Assembly (NCBI RefSeq): GCF_008087665.1
Contig: NZ_CP042912.1
Coordinates: forward strand, 5,394,001 to 5,458,000
Direction of reading: 5' to 3'
DNA: 64,000 bases
From: Mariniblastus fucicola
GTDB lineage: Bacteria > Planctomycetota > Planctomycetia > Pirellulales > Pirellulaceae
Shown: positions 3,332-49,147 of the stretch, in pieces
Numbering within the stretch: the stretch's first letter is position 1
How the letters are laid out: the number at the start of each line of letters is the position of its first letter
Translations under genes and position numbers: made by a program
Notes under the pieces: generated by a model
Seen by the model: the letters and a program-made list of their open reading frames with translations, nothing else
Database searches by the model: none
Told to the model about the DNA's origin: nothing

Positions 3332-5821
3332 ATGATGAAATCTGTCCTTTCGACATTGTCCTTTTCTCTGGTCACGATGTTCTCGGCGTGTGCACTGTTC
3401 GCGCAGGACGACGGCGCGGATTTCTTCTCTGCCAAAGTAAAACCGATCCTTGAACAGCACTGCTTCGAGTGTCACCGAGACGATCCTGACGACCTTGGCG
3501 GCGACCTTGCGTTGGCGTCGCGCGAAAGCATGCTGACCGGTGGAGACTCAGGTTCACTGATTGATGAAGACTCACCGGGCGACAGCCTGCTGCTACGCAC
3601 GATCTCCTATGAAGACGACGCCTACCAGATGCCTCCGGAAGGCAAGTTGAGCGACGAAGAAATTTCCGTGTTGACGAAGTGGGTTGAGCTCGGACTGCCG
3701 TGGAATCCGGACGACGAAATTCAGCTGGAGCAGGATCATGCCGACGGGCCTCCACAAGTCAACGACGAGACCAAAAGCTGGTGGTCGTTTCAAAAAGTCG
3801 AGCGACCTGCTGTGCCGAAAGTTACAGATTCGACCTGGTGCCGAAACGAGATCGATGCCTTCCTGCTGGCCGGGCTGGAAAATGAAAACCTGCAACCGGC
3901 TCCTGACGCGACCAAACGAACGCTGGTCCGACGAGCCTGGTACGACCTGGTGGGACTTCCGCCGACTCCTGAACAGGTCGAAGCATTCGTTAAAGACGAT
4001 TCGCCAGACGCGTGGGAAAGTTTGATCGACGAGCTTCTGGCCAGTCCTCACTACGGAGAAAAATGGGGACGACACTGGATGGATCTGGTCGGATACGCAG
4101 AGAGCAACAGTTTCGAACGGGACGACACCAAGCCTTTTGTTTGGGGCTATCGCGACTACGTGATTCGTTCGCTCAACGAAGACAAACCGTATGACCAGTT
4201 TCTGACCGAACAACTTGCCGGCGATGAACTGCCCGAAGTTTCGATCGACACGGTAACCGCGACAGGGTTCTATCGGCTTGGTTCCTGGGACGATGAACCT
4301 GCCGACCGAGAGCTTGCGAAATACGACGAACTGGATCGCATGGTGGCGGTCGTCGGCCAATCAATGATGGGACTGACGGTAGATTGTGCACGCTGCCATG
4401 ACCACAAAATTGACCCCATTCCACAAGCCGATTACTACCAGATGGTTTCGTTCTTTCAGAACGTTCGCAGTTATGGCGTCCGCGACCACAATTCGGTTTT
4501 GGCCGCATCTGTGACCCAGATGGACGAGCGAAAAATCGACGACGCAACACGACTCGCTCATGAAAAAGAAGTCGCTGCCGTTGAAGCCAGAATGGATGCG
4601 ATTGCAACTCCGGTCAAAGAAGACTTTGAGCCAGTCGATCACGAAGAGTTCAAACATCTCATTAATCGTGAACGTGTTCTGAAGAAGTACGTTGGCAAAT
4701 CGCTGACCGAAGAATTGTTCGCAGAGTACAAAAAGCTGCGCGAACAGTGGCGTCAACTGACACAGAACCCGCCGCAGGGCATTCGCAAGATTCTTTGCGT
4801 AAAAGAACATGGTGCTGAACCGCCGGAGTCTTTCGTCATGATCCGCGGCAACCCGCACGCGCCGGGCAAATCCGTTTCGCCAAAATTTCTCAGCGTCCTG
4901 TCACCGCCGGAACCGGAAATCGTGCCTCCCGCGGACGGAGAAACCACGGGACGACGTTTGGCGTTTGCAAAATGGCTGACCAGTCCGGAGCATCCTCTGA
5001 CGGCTCGCGTGATGGCGAATCGACTTTGGCAGTATCACTTCGGACGCGGCATTGTTCGCACAAGCAGCGACTTTGGGTTCCAGGGAATGGCCCCAACTCA
5101 ACCAGAGCTGCTGGATTGGCTGGCGTCGGAACTGGTTGATGGCGGCTGGCGCCTCAAATCGATGCATAGAAAAATTATGTTGAGTCGTGCCTATCAGATG
5201 AGCACAACGTTTAGCGACGACTCGTATGCCGTCGACCCGGAGAACGATCATTTCTGGCGATTCAATCCACGGCGGCTGACGGCCGAGGAGATTCGCGACT
5301 CGATTTTGTTCGTCAGTGGACAGCTGAATCTTGATACGGTTTACGGGCCAAGCGTTTATCCGCCGATGCCGCAGGAAGTTCTCGACGGGCAATCGATGCC
5401 AGGCAAGAACTGGCACACTTCGAACGACGTCGATTCCCGCCGCCGCAGCCTCTACATTCACATCAAACGCTCGATGGGTGTGCCAATTCTGGAGTCCAAC
5501 GACGCGGCCACCAACGATAGCCCATGCCCGGTTCGCTTCGTCACCACACAGCCCACGCAGGCGATCGGTTTGATCAACAGCGAATTCACCAACCGTCAGG
5601 CCAGGTTGTTTGCTGATTCGATTCGCGCAGAACACACCGATGCGAAGGATCAGGTTGCGGCCGTGTTGCGGCGTGTATTCCAACGGGAACCAACTGCTGT
5701 CGAAATTGATCGCGGGGTTGCCTTGATGAACGAATCCTCTTTGAAGAAAAAGCCTGAAGAAGCATTGAACATCTTTTGCCTGCTGGCCCTGAACCTCAAC
5801 GAGTTCGTCTACCTCCAGTAG
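3332..5821 (+). CDS. PSCyt1 / DUF1549 / DUF1553 secreted cytochrome protein
   Basis: A planctomycete-type exported protein of 829 residues. Residues 1-24 form a signal peptide ending ALFA. A single c-type haem site, CFECH, lies at residues 44-48 in the PSCyt1 domain, followed by the MPPEGKLSDEE loop typical of that domain. The DUF1549 domain occupies roughly 170-375 and includes ARCHDHKIDP, a second CxxCH-like motif that is highly conserved in this family. DUF1553 covers the C-terminal third (NPLTARVMANRLW-type block, here HPLTARVMANRLWQYHFG). Members are usually paired with DUF1501 proteins and sulfatases and are thought to take part in breakdown of complex polysaccharides, though the reaction is unknown. 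Here the gene stands alone, with no DUF1501 partner next to it. Tandem ATG codons at 3332 and 3335 make the exact start trivial. Confidence 0.93.
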   Translation: MMKSVLSTLSFSLVTMFSACALFAQDDGADFFSAKVKPILEQHCFECHRDDPDDLGGDLALASRESMLTGGDSGSLIDEDSPGDSLLLRTISYEDDAYQMPPEGKLSDEEISVLTKWVELGLPWNPDDEIQLEQDHADGPPQVNDETKSWWSFQKVERPAVPKVTDSTWCRNEIDAFLLAGLENENLQPAPDATKRTLVRRAWYDLVGLPPTPEQVEAFVKDDSPDAWESLIDELLASPHYGEKWGRHWMDLVGYAESNSFERDDTKPFVWGYRDYVIRSLNEDKPYDQFLTEQLAGDELPEVSIDTVTATGFYRLGSWDDEPADRELAKYDELDRMVAVVGQSMMGLTVDCARCHDHKIDPIPQADYYQMVSFFQNVRSYGVRDHNSVLAASVTQMDERKIDDATRLAHEKEVAAVEARMDAIATPVKEDFEPVDHEEFKHLINRERVLKKYVGKSLTEELFAEYKKLREQWRQLTQNPPQGIRKILCVKEHGAEPPESFVMIRGNPHAPGKSVSPKFLSVLSPPEPEIVPPADGETTGRRLAFAKWLTSPEHPLTARVMANRLWQYHFGRGIVRTSSDFGFQGMAPTQPELLDWLASELVDGGWRLKSMHRKIMLSRAYQMSTTFSDDSYAVDPENDHFWRFNPRRLTAEEIRDSILFVSGQLNLDTVYGPSVYPPMPQEVLDGQSMPGKNWHTSNDVDSRRRSLYIHIKRSMGVPILESNDAATNDSPCPVRFVTTQPTQAIGLINSEFTNRQARLFADSIRAEHTDAKDQVAAVLRRVFQREPTAVEIDRGVALMNESSLKKKPEEALNIFCLLALNLNEFVYLQ

Positions 5822-7476: not shown

Positions 7477-8559
7477 ATGTCAATTTTCCCGTTAAGCATT
7501 GCGCCGATGATGGACTGCACGGACCGGCATTACCGGTTCATGCTGCGGTTCCTCACGCGCGAAACGTTGCTGTACACGGAAATGGTGACCACCGGAGCAA
7601 TCATTCACGGCGACAAGAATCGCCATCTTGATTTCTCAACCGACGAGCTGCCGCTGGCATTGCAACTTGGCGGAGACGATCCGCAGGCACTTGCTCAATG
7701 TGCCGAACTGGCACAGCAATGGGGTTACACAGAAGTCAACATTAACGTCGGCTGTCCCAGCGATCGGGTCAAGAACGGTCAGTTCGGTGCCTGTTTGATG
7801 GCGCGACCTGAGCGTGTTGCCGAGTGCGTCGAGGCGATGAAGATAGTCGTCGACATTCCGGTAACCGTCAAGCATCGAATCGGTATCGATGATCTTGATC
7901 GCTACGAAGACATGAAGAATTTTGTGACAGTGGTTTCGCAGGCCAAAGCCGATCGCTTTTCCGTTCACGCACGAAAGGCATGGCTCGAAGGTCTCAGCCC
8001 GAAGCAAAATCGAAACGTACCGCCGCTGCGATACGAAGAAGTTTATCGGCTTAAAGCTGAGCTTTCTGATCTGGAGATCGAGATCAATGGTGGCGTCAGG
8101 ACGTTTGACGAAGCGGAAGAGCATCTGCGGCACGTCGATGCCGTCATGATCGGCCGCGCGGCGTATGACAATCCGTTTCTGTTTGCAACTGCCGACGAGC
8201 AGTTCTTTGCGAAACAACACGATACACTGAAGACACGTCGGGAGCTGGTCGAAGCCATGTTCCCCTACATTGAGCACGTTCTTTCGACGACCGATCAGTG
8301 GCTTTCGCGCGTCACGAGGCACATGCACGGCCTGTTCAACGGCATGAAGGGTACCAAAGCGTGGAAGCGATTTTTGGCGGAAAATTCCTACGGGCCCGAC
8401 GCCAATGTGGAAACGCTAAAAAGGGCGTTGGAGGTGGTGCCCACCGAAACGCTCGACGCGACTTTCGACGCGACTTTCGACGCGACTTTCGACGCGAGAA
8501 GCGAAAAAGCCGCCAGAGCCGAATCGAAACAGACACAAACGGAGACCAAAGTTGACTGA
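7477..8559 (+). CDS. dusA: tRNA-dihydrouridine synthase A
   Basis: A flavoenzyme that reduces uridine to dihydrouridine in tRNA, DusA type (U20/U20a). The FMN-binding TIM barrel starts at once (LSIAPMMDCTDRHYR); the active-site cysteine sits in NINVGCPSDRV followed by GACLMARPE; the phosphate-binding block is INGGVRTFDEAEEHL and then VMIGRAAYDNP. The helical C-terminal domain is present (TRHMHGLFNGMKGTKAWKRF). The protein is 360 residues, about 25-30 longer than usual, because of a low-complexity tail containing four TFDA/LDA repeats encoded by a 12-bp tandem repeat. Its TGA overlaps the TTG start of the next gene by 8 bp, suggesting translational coupling. Confidence 0.95.
   Translation: MSIFPLSIAPMMDCTDRHYRFMLRFLTRETLLYTEMVTTGAIIHGDKNRHLDFSTDELPLALQLGGDDPQALAQCAELAQQWGYTEVNINVGCPSDRVKNGQFGACLMARPERVAECVEAMKIVVDIPVTVKHRIGIDDLDRYEDMKNFVTVVSQAKADRFSVHARKAWLEGLSPKQNRNVPPLRYEEVYRLKAELSDLEIEINGGVRTFDEAEEHLRHVDAVMIGRAAYDNPFLFATADEQFFAKQHDTLKTRRELVEAMFPYIEHVLSTTDQWLSRVTRHMHGLFNGMKGTKAWKRFLAENSYGPDANVETLKRALEVVPTETLDATFDATFDATFDARSEKAARAESKQTQTETKVD
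8455..8496 (+). repeat. 12-bp tandem repeat inside dusA
   Basis: Three and a half perfect copies of GACGCGACTTTC run from 8455 to 8496. The unit length is a multiple of three, so changes in copy number keep the dusA frame open and only lengthen or shorten the (T/L)(F/D)A-type tail outside the catalytic fold. Confidence 0.9.
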
Positions 8560-10093
8560 ACTGCTCGACATCGTTCTGAATTCTCGCGACCCGAGGCAAA
8601 CACAATGGCAACTGGAGAACCGATCTGCGCAGATTGCCGAACTTGATCCTCAAGGCGTTGACAGCCTGCTTGTTGCGTTGGTGGAAACGCTTGGTGACGC
8701 ACCGCAGGCCAATGCCGATACGGCGGCTTCCATTCAGATCCTGATCCACCGACTTTCTGCCAAGCCATCCGGACAAGCGTGGACCAACGCGAGGCTCAAC
8801 GCTGTCGAATCGCTGTATCGCAACGCCCCGATCGAAGCGGATTTGCGGAATCAACTGCTGCACTGGATAGCAGCCAGTGGTGACGTGGACGCGATGAAAC
8901 TGTGGGCCGAGTTGATCACGACGGAGCCTCCCGAACATCGCCTTGGCTTGGTGATGGCTTTTGCTCCATTGATGCACAAGGATTTTGATCCACCGCCCTG
9001 GCTGCAGGAAAAGTTGCTGGTCGAGGGTACGAGCCACATGCAGATCGCTCCGCTGGTTTTCGACGTGTTCAACTTTTGGTTTCGTTCTGAGAAAGTTTCA
9101 AAGCACCCTGCCGAACCGCGGCTGGACCATTTACTGACGTTGTTTGGTCAGCTGATCGGGCAGCTTGGCAAGATCGAAGAAGGCAACATTCGCAAGGACG
9201 TCGATTTGCTGACGCTAAATTTGCAGATCTCCGACAGCGTTTCTCTCGTCGTCAGTTTGTGCGATTTCTTCGGACTGCTGGAATCCGATTTGGCCAAACC
9301 GAAACTTCACCAGGCGATGGCGCTCAAGCATCGTCGCGTGCAAACAGAAGCGTCCGCGGCGCTGGCGAGATTGGGCGAAGAAGAAGGCAAAGAAATGCTG
9401 ATCAGTCTGGCAGAGGAACCGGTTGCGCGGCTTCGCGTGTTGAATTACGCGGAAGAACTGGGTTTCCTGAAAGACGTTTCGCTTGAGTGGCAGGGTGAGA
9501 TCGCGACGGCCGAAAGCCATCTGGCGATTTGGCTTTCCGATCCGCGACAAGTCGGTTTCGCGCCGGCGGAGATCAAACTGATTGACAATCGCGAACTGAA
9601 TTGGCCCAGCTACGACCATCCGGTTCAGTGCTACCTGTTCGACTATCGATACGGACTCAAAGACGACGCTCCCGGAAACGTTGGCATCTGCGGTCCGATG
9701 ACTCATGCGTTTCCCGCCGACCTTCGCGGGCTCAGCCAGGACGACATGTATGCCGCGTTTGCGGGTTGGCAAACCGTTCACGAAGAAATCTTTGTCACCA
9801 CGATCGATCGGGCGAAGGCAGCCGCTCCGGATGACATCTCCGCATTGGAGAATCGGATGCAAGGGATCGAAGACGGTGTCGTAGAAAAAGTCGAACTCGT
9901 CGGCAACTTTTTTGGGCAATGGATTCTGCTTGCATCCGGTGAAACTGAAGGCAGTTCGGCAACGCTGGTGGTCGACGAAGAAGACGAATTCTGGATTGGC
10001 TGCGGCAACCCAAATGCACCGATCGATGCCGAAACGGTTTGGTCGATCGTACAAGGCCGCAAGCTTCTGGCGCACTTCAATGACGATGTTTGA
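8552..10093 (+). CDS. HEAT-repeat-like protein of unknown function
   Basis: I do not recognise a named family. The 513-residue protein is soluble, acidic and without a signal peptide. Its first two thirds are helical and look like degenerate HEAT/armadillo repeats (for example the block LKHRRVQTEASAALARLGEE and its neighbour LISLAEEPVARLRVLNYAEE). The last third (after about residue 330, from QVGFAPAEIKLIDNREL) is a mixed domain rich in aromatic residues (WPSYDHPVQCYLFDYRYG) that resembles planctomycete proteins of unknown role. The TTG start overlaps the dusA stop by 8 bp, so it is probably co-translated with dusA, hinting at a link with tRNA or simply co-transcription. It is convergent with the retron reverse transcriptase. 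Confidence 0.75.
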   Translation: MTELLDIVLNSRDPRQTQWQLENRSAQIAELDPQGVDSLLVALVETLGDAPQANADTAASIQILIHRLSAKPSGQAWTNARLNAVESLYRNAPIEADLRNQLLHWIAASGDVDAMKLWAELITTEPPEHRLGLVMAFAPLMHKDFDPPPWLQEKLLVEGTSHMQIAPLVFDVFNFWFRSEKVSKHPAEPRLDHLLTLFGQLIGQLGKIEEGNIRKDVDLLTLNLQISDSVSLVVSLCDFFGLLESDLAKPKLHQAMALKHRRVQTEASAALARLGEEEGKEMLISLAEEPVARLRVLNYAEELGFLKDVSLEWQGEIATAESHLAIWLSDPRQVGFAPAEIKLIDNRELNWPSYDHPVQCYLFDYRYGLKDDAPGNVGICGPMTHAFPADLRGLSQDDMYAAFAGWQTVHEEIFVTTIDRAKAAAPDDISALENRMQGIEDGVVEKVELVGNFFGQWILLASGETEGSSATLVVDEEDEFWIGCGNPNAPIDAETVWSIVQGRKLLAHFNDDV

Positions 10094-10187: not shown

Positions 10188-11204
10188 TTACCACTCAATT
10201 CGCTCCAACAGCTTTCGAAGCTTCTCGCCACGCCCGCGGTTCAGCATCTCCACCCACTGAACGCGTCCTTCGAGATGCTGCCGAAAGGCCGGATGGTTAT
10301 CCCGGTTTTGGGATGTTGGCCCGCTCCGAACGCAGTTGTGCAAAATGGCCTTGAGCCTGTCAAAATTCTCCCGCGGAACATTCAGTTTCTCGTTGAGCAC
10401 GATTCCGGCTGCGAATTGCCGCTGGCTTGCCCGTGCCAGTCGGGTTTTTCGATAGTTGATTTCAAAGCCCTCTTCAATCGCGATCGCGCCGACGTGAGCC
10501 CGAAGCCGACCTGATTGACGCGCCAAATCCGAATCGCCGGAAAACAGAATGTCATCCGCATATCGTGAGTAGCAAACTCCGCCGACAGATCTGGCCAAAC
10601 CTGAAAGCCGTGCGTCAAGTCGATAGGCGCACAGGTTCGCGATCGCCGGAGACGTCGGAGCACCTTGCGGCAAATGCCGACGAAGATGCTTCGGAGACTG
10701 CACGCTAAAGGTCGCCCGAGGATGCTCGACAGAAAGGATACGAGGGCTCGTTTGAACCGTCGTCAACATGGCAATACTGTTCGCAACATCGCAAGGATAG
10801 CCAGAATTCCGCAGCAACCCTGCCACCCGTCCAGTGGTTACCGAAGTAAAGAAATCGGTCAGATCAAAGCGCCAACATACATCTTTGCCGACATGCGGTT
10901 TCACAAAATCGATCACACTTCGGTTCCGGCAAAACCCGAACGCGAGAACATGCGGAGGCATTGCGTTGAAGATCGTGTCGAGCAGAATCCGTTGCACATA
11001 TCGCAGTCTGGATCGAGGCGCTTCAATCAGCCGCCATCCGCCAGAGCGTTTCCGGATCCAGTGACTTCGATAGTGCCTGGACCAGGAATCGGGAGCGCTT
11101 CGTCGACCGCAAGGGTTGGCCAGCCAACGCAGCTGCTCCGGTTCGATTTCCAGAAGGTTGGCCAGTTGCAGAAGAGTTCTGATTTTGGGGACTGGAAACT
11201 TCAT
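10188..11204 (-). CDS. Retron-type reverse transcriptase
   Basis: A 338-residue RNA-directed DNA polymerase. Fingers and palm motifs: KRSGGWRLIEAP near residue 52 (RT1), GFCRNRSVIDFVKPHV (region X equivalent, the His kept but NAxxH replaced by FVKPH), DLTDFFTSV 114-122 with the first catalytic Asp, LPQGAPTSPAIANL from 178, and YADD at 215-218 with the catalytic Asp pair. The retron thumb block is present, with AAG in place of the usual VTG followed by NEKLNVPR (about 265-278). There is no maturase domain and no fused effector, which argues against a group II intron. The gene lies 25 nt after the a2 arm of a predicted msr-msd RNA on the same strand, the classical retron order. The ATG at 11204 is chosen; an in-frame TTG is at 11210 and an in-frame TGA lies just upstream. 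Confidence 0.93.
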   Translation of the reverse strand: MKFPVPKIRTLLQLANLLEIEPEQLRWLANPCGRRSAPDSWSRHYRSHWIRKRSGGWRLIEAPRSRLRYVQRILLDTIFNAMPPHVLAFGFCRNRSVIDFVKPHVGKDVCWRFDLTDFFTSVTTGRVAGLLRNSGYPCDVANSIAMLTTVQTSPRILSVEHPRATFSVQSPKHLRRHLPQGAPTSPAIANLCAYRLDARLSGLARSVGGVCYSRYADDILFSGDSDLARQSGRLRAHVGAIAIEEGFEINYRKTRLARASQRQFAAGIVLNEKLNVPRENFDRLKAILHNCVRSGPTSQNRDNHPAFRQHLEGRVQWVEMLNRGRGEKLRKLLERIEW

Positions 11205-11228
11205 CGACAATTCGAAGCATTGGAAAAC

Positions 11229-11383
11229 CCTTTCCGATTCAACGTGTCATGCCAGCAGTGAAATCAGGGGCGTCGGTAGGCGCCCGGTCTTTCACGCAAA
11301 CGCGTTTGCAACGTCCAGTTAAACCACGGGGTAACCCCGCAGAGGATCTTTCGAAATGAAACATCCAGCTTGAATCGGAAAGG
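11229..11383 (-). ncRNA. Predicted retron msr-msd non-coding RNA
   Basis: The 155-nt region directly upstream of the reverse transcriptase has the layout of a retron RNA. The a1 arm, CCTTTCCGATTCAA (minus strand, 11383 to 11370), is perfectly complementary to the a2 arm TTGAATCGGAAAGG (11242 to 11229), and three G-U pairs extend it. A1 is followed at once by GC, giving AAGC, with G11369 as candidate branching guanosine. Next comes a 9-bp hairpin with one mismatch (11366 to 11344; loop ATTTC), similar to the GGATG...ATCC hairpin with a TTTCG loop in msr of retron Ec86. Then a GC-rich hairpin CGGGGTTACCCCG (11339-11327), a palindrome GCAAACGCGTTTGC (11309-11296) and a long hairpin (11297-11255; arms GCGTGAAA and TTTCACTGC around GGGCG/CGCCC) that would lie in msd. 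The msr/msd border cannot be fixed by eye. Confidence 0.85.
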
Positions 11384-11389
11384 ACCAGT

Positions 11390-11418
11390 ATTTGAGAGTG
11401 GCTTCTGGCCTGTGTCAA
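11390..11418 (-). promoter_or_regulatory. Sigma70-like promoter of the retron RNA
   Basis: On the minus strand a perfect -35 box TTGACA (11418-11413) is followed after exactly 17 bp by TCAAAT (11395-11390; four of six matches to TATAAT). Transcription would start about 7 nt further on, at 11383, the first base of the a1 arm. It sits between the HTTM gene stop and the retron RNA, so the retron appears to have its own promoter. Confidence 0.75.
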
Positions 11419-49000: not shown

Positions 49001-49047
49001 TCAGGGCCGTCCCTGGATGAGAATAGAGCGGTGAGGTCGTCCTCACT
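49001..49047 (-). promoter_or_regulatory. Guanidine-II (mini-ykkC) riboswitch
   Basis: On the minus strand two hairpins with ACGR tetraloops lie just before sugE: GTGAGG-ACGA-CCTCAC (49046-49031) and CAGGG-ACGG-CCCTG (49015-49002), joined by a 15-nt linker. Paired stem-loops with ACGR loops are the defining feature of the mini-ykkC/guanidine-II class, each loop binding one guanidinium. The second hairpin ends 21 nt before the ATG, so ligand binding probably frees the ribosome site. Confidence 0.92.
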
Positions 49048-49147
49048 TCTGGTGATTGTTTGCCAGCGAGTGCCGACTAGCTTGAGTCCACAAACGGCCG
49101 GCCTTTCAATGAACCCAACAGGACGAATTCATACTCTTCGAAATCGA

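What the first reader, a model, noticed from the sequence alone, without database searches (positions are those of the whole stretch)
10188..11418. Complete retron in a planctomycete: RT gene plus msr-msd RNA with perfect a1/a2 arms
Seen: an RT with YADD, LPQGAPTSP and a retron-type thumb (NEKLNVPR), preceded on the same strand by a 155-nt element bounded by perfectly complementary 14-nt arms (11383-11370 and 11242-11229). A1 is followed by AAGC with a candidate branching G at 11369, then an msr-like hairpin with a TTTC-containing loop and a long msd-like hairpin (11297-11255). Known: retrons have exactly this order (a1, branch G, msr, msd, a2, RT). Inferred: the locus makes msDNA. The RT departs from the norm (FVKPH at region X and AAG for VTG), which suggests a divergent, perhaps undescribed, retron clade.
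Basis: partly seen in the sequence, partly recalled or inferred. Interest (0 to 1): 0.92.

Follow-up and report, generated by a model that had tools for sequence, protein, structure and literature searches.

The report
Planctomycete retron without an effector gene
This is a genuine retron, a small bacterial gene unit predicted to copy part of its own RNA into DNA; it belongs to a widespread but little-studied branch for which no partner gene was found here, so its job is an open and testable question.

Summary
The 338-340-aa reverse transcriptase (RT) is retron-type: PADLOC's best profiles are RT_other and RT_outgroup. The arms (11383-11370, 11242-11229) and G11369 are exact. The RNA is real. 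A covariance model built without the window's clade finds it at 11225-11387 (52.4 bits, E 1.5e-13). It lies upstream of the RT in 66 of 81 loci and 78 of 80 named loci from several phyla. In 67 matches 95% of helix cells pair, covariation 0.52 against 0.16 shuffled; the arms covary.

Corrections. The RT clade is not undescribed: PADLOC holds it, as untyped 'outgroup/other'. The window's sub-clade lacks a ~100-aa helical N-terminal domain that most relatives carry. No effector was found nearby, and no neighbour gene recurs consistently in 121 loci except through conserved gene order in one family. There 98 of 120 genomes carry such an RT, in four genera in the same gene order.

Best reading: a functional, effector-less retron making a short msDNA branched at G11369; output unknown, msDNA not tested. 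Known kind, unusual variant.

The parts
11370..11383 (-). a1 arm (14 nt, perfectly complementary to a2; 17 bp with G-U pairs, 11386-11370)
   Evidence: sequence; inverted repeat; covariation
11369..11369 (-). candidate priming/branching G (AAGC context), first base after a1; column invariant in the 27-row alignment A2
   Evidence: the branch itself is inferred from retron biochemistry (PMC6868368, passages)
11344..11366 (-). msr hairpin 1 (variable in sequence; 76% of cells paired in the 67-row alignment)
   Evidence: fold; helix 2
11324..11342 (-). msr hairpin 2, GGGG-TTA-CCCC core, the best conserved element of the RNA family
   Evidence: 99.8% of cells paired in helix 3
11255..11297 (-). 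msd hairpin, inner stem GGGCG/CGCCC with loop CCTACCGA (11285-11268)
   Evidence: helices 4 and 5
11229..11242 (-). a2 arm
11225..11387 (-). whole msr-msd RNA as matched by the leave-clade-out covariance model R2
   Evidence: 52.4 bits, E 1.5e-13
10188..11204 (-). retron reverse transcriptase, 338 aa from ATG 11204 (340 aa from TTG 11210); no N-terminal extension

Best explanation
A functional retron. One minus-strand transcript carries the msr-msd RNA and, 24 nt behind a2, the RT start codon. The a1/a2 stem presents G11369 to the RT, which primes on its 2'-OH, copies the msd hairpin region beginning just inside a2 and stops in the linker near 11298-11305, giving an msDNA of roughly 55-65 nt of DNA branched to an msr of about 70 nt that keeps the two msr hairpins. 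Shown by computation: the RNA, its arms, its conservation and covariation, and a retron-type RT with its catalytic motifs and a pattern of change that fits purifying selection. Inferred from retron biochemistry: one transcript, 2'-5' priming, trimming by host RNase H, and the product length. No dedicated effector was found. The RT-msDNA particle probably acts alone or with an unlinked host protein, as a sensor (of phage proteins or of some state of the cell's DNA), rather than as the antitoxin of a neighbouring toxin. That last step is a guess.
For: RT profiles: RT_other 419.7 bits, RT_outgroup 401.3, RT_XIII 309.9; the one group II model reported, 41.4 bits. Solved relatives by sequence: retron RTs hold the first 14 of 16 rows. 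AF2 model of the relative L119 (core 47-49% identical to the window; pLDDT 93): Foldseek ranks 1-18 are retron RTs, led by Ec86 at E 2.3e-20; first group II RT at 1.7e-9. RNA: R1 finds it in 66 of 81 loci, in all 27 used to build it and in 39 of the other 54, and in 78 of 80 genome-contig loci at E<=0.01, 76 at E<=0.001; R2, without the window clade, finds the window. Covariation in 67 R2 matches: cells paired 95.0% vs 75.6% shuffled and 40-48% slid; score 0.524 vs 0.156 and 0.06-0.10. Arms: 55 motif-anchored loci pair at 0.821 vs 0.588 with partners shuffled, maximum 0.657 in 5000; mean duplex energy of 94 loci -39.4 vs -25.9 kcal/mol. Selection: window vs L002 and L083 differ at 0.37/0.25/0.61-0.67 of codon positions 1/2/3.
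Against: No msDNA or transcript data. The msd end, product length and branch are by analogy. The RT lacks NAXXH (FVKPH) and VTG (AAG), both named as retron marks. 15 of 81 loci gave no R1 hit (some cut by contig ends, some of other clades). Own arms were the best partner in only 38 of 94 loci, in the top 5% in 73. msr hairpin 1 pairs in only 76% of cells, and the alignment was fitted to the model's structure. In the window's genus 3 of the 6 genomes sampled (own included) had a strong match, so it is not essential there.
Confidence: 0.85

Rival explanations
1. Ordinary tripartite anti-phage retron whose effector is encoded elsewhere in the genome or is a host protein; in most relatives the RT's own N-terminal helical domain is the effector or the effector's docking site.
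For: Retrons whose mechanism is worked out are described as defence systems with an effector (start of abstract and passages of PMC12548924, passages of PMC8989520). 56 of 65 RTs tabulated (of 80 loci) have an N-terminal region of 85-128 aa, starts chosen by script; in L119 it is predicted as five helices (pLDDT 90).
Against: None of 6 neighbours of the window RT matches PADLOC. No neighbour cluster recurs consistently: outside family f4 the commonest is in 8 of 121 loci in mixed positions; five Burkholderia loci share a 129-aa ORF just downstream. The N-domain is absent from the window clade, where the RT is kept, and has no PDB match (best E 5.7). A colonisation role has been reported for another msDNA (PMC4569332, start of abstract in a listing).
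Confidence: 0.35
2. A resident, non-defence cellular element: in the related family f4 the retron is present in most genomes and in several genera keeps one chromosomal site, so this lineage may serve a housekeeping role for msDNA.
For: 98 of 120 f4 genomes carry the RT at E<=1e-30 (79 of 94 high-quality ones), 88 of 120 with my cut of 226 bits, and 90 of these 105 RTs have the RNA directly upstream. The order 'gene 3 < RT > gene 2' is intact in 11 of 20 f4 loci that I chose (7 of 8 of genus g73, and 4 loci of three other genera); in an eighth g73 locus two genes lie between RT and gene 2.
Against: In the window's own family only 26 of 149 genomes have a strong match (my cut of 234 bits), and in the window's genus the flanking genes are not kept side by side. 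The 98 genomes include other RT clades (10 of them have only weak matches). Defence genes can be core too. The f4 clade has a different N-terminus.
Confidence: 0.25
3. A decaying relic: loss of the N-terminal domain has left an RT and RNA without function.
For: Domain missing in the window, L002 and L083; no effector found; patchy in the genus.
Against: Three genomes of the clade at 59-61% identity keep an intact frame, the catalytic motifs and paired arms of different sequence.
Confidence: 0.1
4. Not a retron: an RT of another class (group II, DGR, UG/Abi) with a structured leader RNA.
For: Region X and VTG deviate from the textbook motifs.
Against: Profiles, solved relatives and the fold of a relative favour retron RTs by a wide margin; the RNA has the retron order a1-G-msr-msd-a2-RT with covarying arms.
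Confidence: 0.02

Closest known systems
PADLOC-DB RT_outgroup (PDLC03740, 'retron') and RT_other (PDLC02949)
   Same: Match of the relative L119 over nearly the whole profile, N-terminal domain included (positions 7-407 of 407 and 68-470 of 481); the window matches from position 80 or 143 on.
   Different: The window lacks the part of the profile that holds the N-terminal domain. The table returned gives no named type or effector for these profiles.
Retron-Mxa2 (Mx65), validated myxobacterial retron
   Same: Per PMC6868368 (passages): RT with an extended N-terminus, asparagine of NAXXH substituted, priming G within or directly after the stem. Relatives of the window family occur in the family of the Pyxidicoccus genome (L204, L218-L224) with this RNA (L222 and L221 weakly).
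   Different: I could not obtain the Mx65 sequence, so kinship with this clade is not tested. Mx65 has GAGC, while L218, L220 and L223 have CAGC and the window AAGC. By the review Mx65 keeps VTG.
Retron-Mxa1 (Mx162) and kin (L237, L239, L028, L029, L226)
   Same: Among the next RT groups outside the window family; the review calls Mx162 N-extended and probably vertically inherited.
   Different: L028 is 42% and L029 40% identical to the window RT; longer N-terminal region. R2 does not find the RNA in L237, L028, L029 or L226. L237 was recognised as Mx162-like from a recalled sequence, no call.
Retron-Eco1 (Ec86)
   Same: Best solved relative: phmmer E 7.2e-27 for the window RT; Foldseek E 2.3e-20 for the relative L119.
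   Different: Ec86 has an accessory protein with a predicted NDT-like domain (PMC8989520, passages); none found here.

Membership tests
Retron | RT of the retron class | tested here: met
   fold of the relative L119
Retron | Region X NAXXH | tested here: not met
   FVKPH in the window; in 22 aligned rows (window included) the H is invariant, the N is not. Not a strict feature: two of 16 validated retrons also lack the N (PMC6868368, passages).
Retron | Region Y beginning with VTG | tested here: not met
   AAG in the window; the 22 rows show LAG, VAG, LTG, ATG, VCG and others, only the G being invariant; VTG occurs in more distant members such as L205 and L224. Two of 16 validated retrons also deviate.
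Retron | Inverted a1/a2 arms enclosing msr-msd directly upstream of the RT | tested here: met
Retron | Priming guanosine at the end of a1, usually in AGC | tested here: met
   AAGC, G11369; G invariant in 27 rows. Priming itself not testable.
Retron | msr hairpins and an msd hairpin conserved by covariation | tested here: met
   helices 2-5 (helix 2 weakest, 76% paired)
Retron | Branched msDNA in cells | not testable with these tools
   -
Tripartite retron defence system | Effector gene or effector domain with the RT | tested here: not met
   No PADLOC hit among 6 neighbours, no consistently recurrent neighbour, no Pfam domain but RVT_1 in the RT and no room for a fused domain. An unlinked effector is not excluded.
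PADLOC RT_outgroup / RT_other clade | Best profile match over the RT core | tested here: met
PADLOC RT_outgroup / RT_other clade | N-terminal helical domain | tested here: not met
   Absent in the window and L002, L083 and L101; present in most of the 65 RTs
Mx65 (Retron-Mxa2) type | Sequence and RNA kinship with Mx65 | not tested
   Mx65 sequence not obtained
Group II intron RT | Maturase/RT profile at its cut-off | tested here: not met
   TIGR04416 41.4 bits against a cut-off of 300

The most novel reading that the evidence does not exclude
An effector-free lineage of retrons, resident in most genomes of one planctomycete family, in which the RT-msDNA particle itself is the working unit: its output is set by an exchangeable N-terminal module (five-helix domain, an amphipathic-looking segment, or nothing, as in the window), and in some genomes the RNA is supplied in trans from another locus.
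Probability: 0.25. Interest if true: 0.8.

Novelty: new variant of a known kind. Interest (0 to 1): 0.5.

Why it matters
Retrons whose mechanism is worked out guard an effector. For this branch no effector could be seen, yet it is spread over Planctomycetota, Verrucomicrobiota, Acidobacteriota, Myxococcota and Pseudomonadota (record titles and tree labels) with one RNA design, and is present in most genomes of one planctomycete family. The window's version is the smallest form, RNA plus RT only. It is therefore a clean system for asking what msDNA does without a toxin, and the RNA family and the N-terminal domain are concrete handles. The RNA was not found in Rfam; whether PADLOC's msr-msd models or Mestre et al. 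2020 already contain it could not be checked.

Tried and rejected
Viral contigs: no relative. Phages: only distant RTs, at most 31% identity. Plasmids: Burkholderia records at 45-47% identity, on replicons of 0.88-1.26 Mb, and lower ones. Gene 2 of f4 (membrane-protein-like by my reading) as an effector: rejected as an obligatory partner, because it occurs in 100 of 120 f4 genomes, among them 9 of the 20 RT-less genomes listed, and often far from the RT; it is still commoner where the RT is. Empty-site comparison for the window: both flanking genes are kept in the genus (20 of 21 and 19 of 21 genomes) but lie on different contigs or far apart in the genomes compared, so no boundary could be read. 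First motif-anchored arm search was too strict and was replaced by covariance models. Myxococcaceae L218 as Mx65: not claimed, CAGC instead of GAGC. N-terminal domain: no Pfam match in L119 or L084, no PDB match. Mestre et al. 2020 not held. Literature searches: no title or abstract start listed describes a planctomycete retron; the one 'planctomycet' in PMC8867640 is in its reference list. Most subscription papers are not in that library.

Rows left out: A2 used 21 of the first 30 loci plus six more, picked by me. One search was given 118 of 157 RNA hits (near-duplicates, truncated, partial and same-genome hits omitted by me), 94 stayed after redundancy filtering, and one search used the 55 of these with unique anchors. 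One search was given 71 sources (window, L002 and 69 of the 80 named loci; those used to build R2 and some same-genome copies omitted) and 67 matched at E<=1e-5; these are the rows. One search tabulated 65 of the 80. Neighbourhood genes are crude ORF calls within 6 kb. The 20 f4 neighbourhoods were picked by me and 8 are of one genus. The tree is a quick one with a long outgroup.

Full report
The observation. The sequence at 10188-11418 was read on the minus strand. The likelier RT start is ATG 11204, which gives 338 aa and leaves 24 nt between a2 and the start codon. The stretch folds better than all 200 shuffles (z -3.7), and the genome gives one match each for RT and RNA.

The RT. The best PADLOC profiles are RT_other (5e-126) and RT_outgroup (1.4e-120), ahead of typed retrons such as XIII and III-A. 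NCBIfam retron models match below their cut-offs and the group II model at 41 bits. Solved relatives are retron RTs in the first 14 of 16 rows, then two rows of a group II-like RT. Both structure predictions were made on a relative, L119 (440 aa, core 47-49% identical to the window): full length gave pLDDT 93, and Foldseek's first 18 matches are retron RTs. Region X reads FVKPH and region Y AAG. In 22 aligned rows, window included, the H of region X is invariant but the N is not, and of VTG only the G is invariant; a 2019 review reports a substituted N in the validated Retron-Mxa2/Mx65 (PMC6868368, passages seen). These departures are therefore common in this branch and no sign of an undescribed one.

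The RNA in relatives. A search upstream of the RT in 30 loci showed, in 21 that I selected, an inverted repeat of different letters spanning 154-198 nt in front of the reading frame. These and six more gave alignment A2 and model R1. R1 finds the RNA in 66 of 81 loci: in all 27 used for building and in 39 of the other 54. In the 80 named loci of the genome collection it finds 78 at E<=0.01 and 76 at E<=0.001; nine of these genomes were already among the earlier loci. Record titles and tree labels name Planctomycetota, Verrucomicrobiota, Acidobacteriota, Myxococcota, Pseudomonadota and a few others. A second model R2 was built from 22 sequences of which none belongs to the window's clade. It finds the window at 11225-11387 with 52.4 bits and E 1.5e-13.

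Covariation. On 67 R2 matches, 95.0% of 1987 cells form standard pairs (75.6% shuffled, 40-48% slid), 25 of 30 pairs show changes on both sides, and the covariation score is 0.524 against 0.156 shuffled and 0.06-0.10 slid. The first msr hairpin is the weakest (76% paired). That alignment is fitted to the model structure, which favours it; the arms were therefore also tested without it. In 55 of 94 non-redundant loci the arms could be located by sequence motif alone, and they pair in 0.821 of positions against 0.588 when a1 and a2 are taken from different loci (maximum 0.657 in 5000 shuffles). Duplex energies in all 94 loci average -39.4 kcal/mol for own arms and -25.9 for shuffled ones (minimum -28.3 in 10000). 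Own arms were the best of the row in 38 of 94 and in the top 5% in 73 of 94, so many arms are not exclusive to their partner.

The missing domain. Most relatives start with a region of about 100 aa before the RT core (56 of 65 tabulated have 85-128 aa). In L119 it is predicted as five helices (pLDDT 90), with no Pfam match and no PDB match (best E 5.7). The window, L002 (same genus) and L083 (uncultured Pirellulaceae) lack it and form a clade (SH-aLRT 99); in the set of six that joins them next (97), L003/L084 (a Mariniblastus, same genus as the window) has it. The simplest history is one loss in this lineage. L101 (Aeoliella) also lacks it and lies elsewhere in the tree. Differences of the window RT to L002 and L083 are 0.37, 0.25 and 0.61-0.67 at codon positions 1, 2 and 3, which fits purifying selection.

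No effector found. None of six neighbours of the window RT matches PADLOC; those with a Pfam name are an HTTM protein, a sulfotransferase, a Dus and a MatE protein. In 121 neighbourhoods (crude ORF calls, 6 kb each side) the only strongly recurrent genes are those of family f4's gene order; elsewhere the commonest cluster is in 8 loci in mixed positions, and five Burkholderia loci share a 129-aa ORF just downstream. Of 20 f4 loci that I chose, 11 keep 'gene 3 < RT > gene 2' (7 of the 8 of genus g73, and 4 of three other genera); one more g73 locus has two genes between RT and gene 2, and two loci of two further genera keep RT > gene 2 alone. Gene 3 looks like an M50-type protease and gene 2 like a membrane protein, by my reading of the sequences, not by a search. 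Gene 2 occurs in 100 of 120 f4 genomes, among them 9 of 20 listed genomes without the RT, and is often far from it.

Distribution. In the window's family, 62 of 149 genomes have some match at E<=0.001, 26 a strong one (my cut of 234 bits); in the phylum sample 80 of 392 at E<=1e-20; in f4 98 of 120 at E<=1e-30, 88 with my cut of 226 bits. R1 finds the RNA in 85 of 120 f4 genomes, 93 of 102 hits within 1.5 kb upstream of an RT on the same strand; of 105 strong RTs 90 have it. Of the nine other hits, three lie in one genus (G403, G575, G597) at a place with no RT in the stretch fetched, with intact arms and quite different but paired msd stems, while the RT found in these genomes has no R1 or R2 match next to it. 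G543:C1008 is a similar case. The remaining five lie at contig ends, beside an RT fragment, or overlap another hit. In the window's genus the flanking genes are kept but not side by side.

How it works. Established by computation: RNA, arms, RT class and signs of selection. Inferred from retron biochemistry: priming at G11369, copying of the msd hairpin, RNase H trimming. Unknown: the output. The lack of any partner found makes a neighbour toxin unlikely; an unlinked host partner, a sensor role or a housekeeping role remain.

Novelty. The kind is known, the RT branch is in PADLOC, and myxobacterial retrons that may be related have been studied for decades. New here, as far as the searches could tell, are the covarying RNA family (not found in Rfam), the effector-less and domain-less minimal form, and the presence in most genomes of one family. 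Whether Mestre et al. 2020 or PADLOC's RNA models, which exist (PMC9252829, passages), already hold this RNA could not be checked, so no claim of priority is made.

Noticed in passing
L241 5627-5786(+), L242 5173-5333(-), L243 5262-5421(+): In three genomes of one f4 genus the retron RNA lies at a locus without an RT, between what looks like a sulfotransferase gene and a transporter gene (my reading of the ORFs), while the RT sits elsewhere without an adjacent RNA hit: apparently a retron whose RNA is supplied in trans. The msd stems differ strongly but stay paired. G543 may be a further case (L247).
   Followed up: partly
L245 (G556:C274:3940-4079 and 4259-4398): Two tandem copies of the retron RNA upstream of one RT.
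   Followed up: no
L031, L035, L038, L039, L041, L053, L076, L024, L051: RTs of the f4 clade and its kin begin with MGLFDxLxRLLFG-like sequences and a low-complexity linker in place of the five-helix domain; by eye an amphipathic, possibly membrane-binding segment. Mx162-like L028 starts alike.
   Followed up: no
window 49002-49048 (-): Guanidine-II riboswitch (mini-ykkC), 46.7 bits against a gathering score of 32.
   Followed up: no
window 8552-10093 (+): A 513-aa protein with no Pfam match, found in 20 of 21 genomes of the genus, convergent with the retron.
   Followed up: partly
L087, L118: N-terminal domain and RT core lie in one frame but are separated by a stop codon; split genes or assembly errors.
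   Followed up: no
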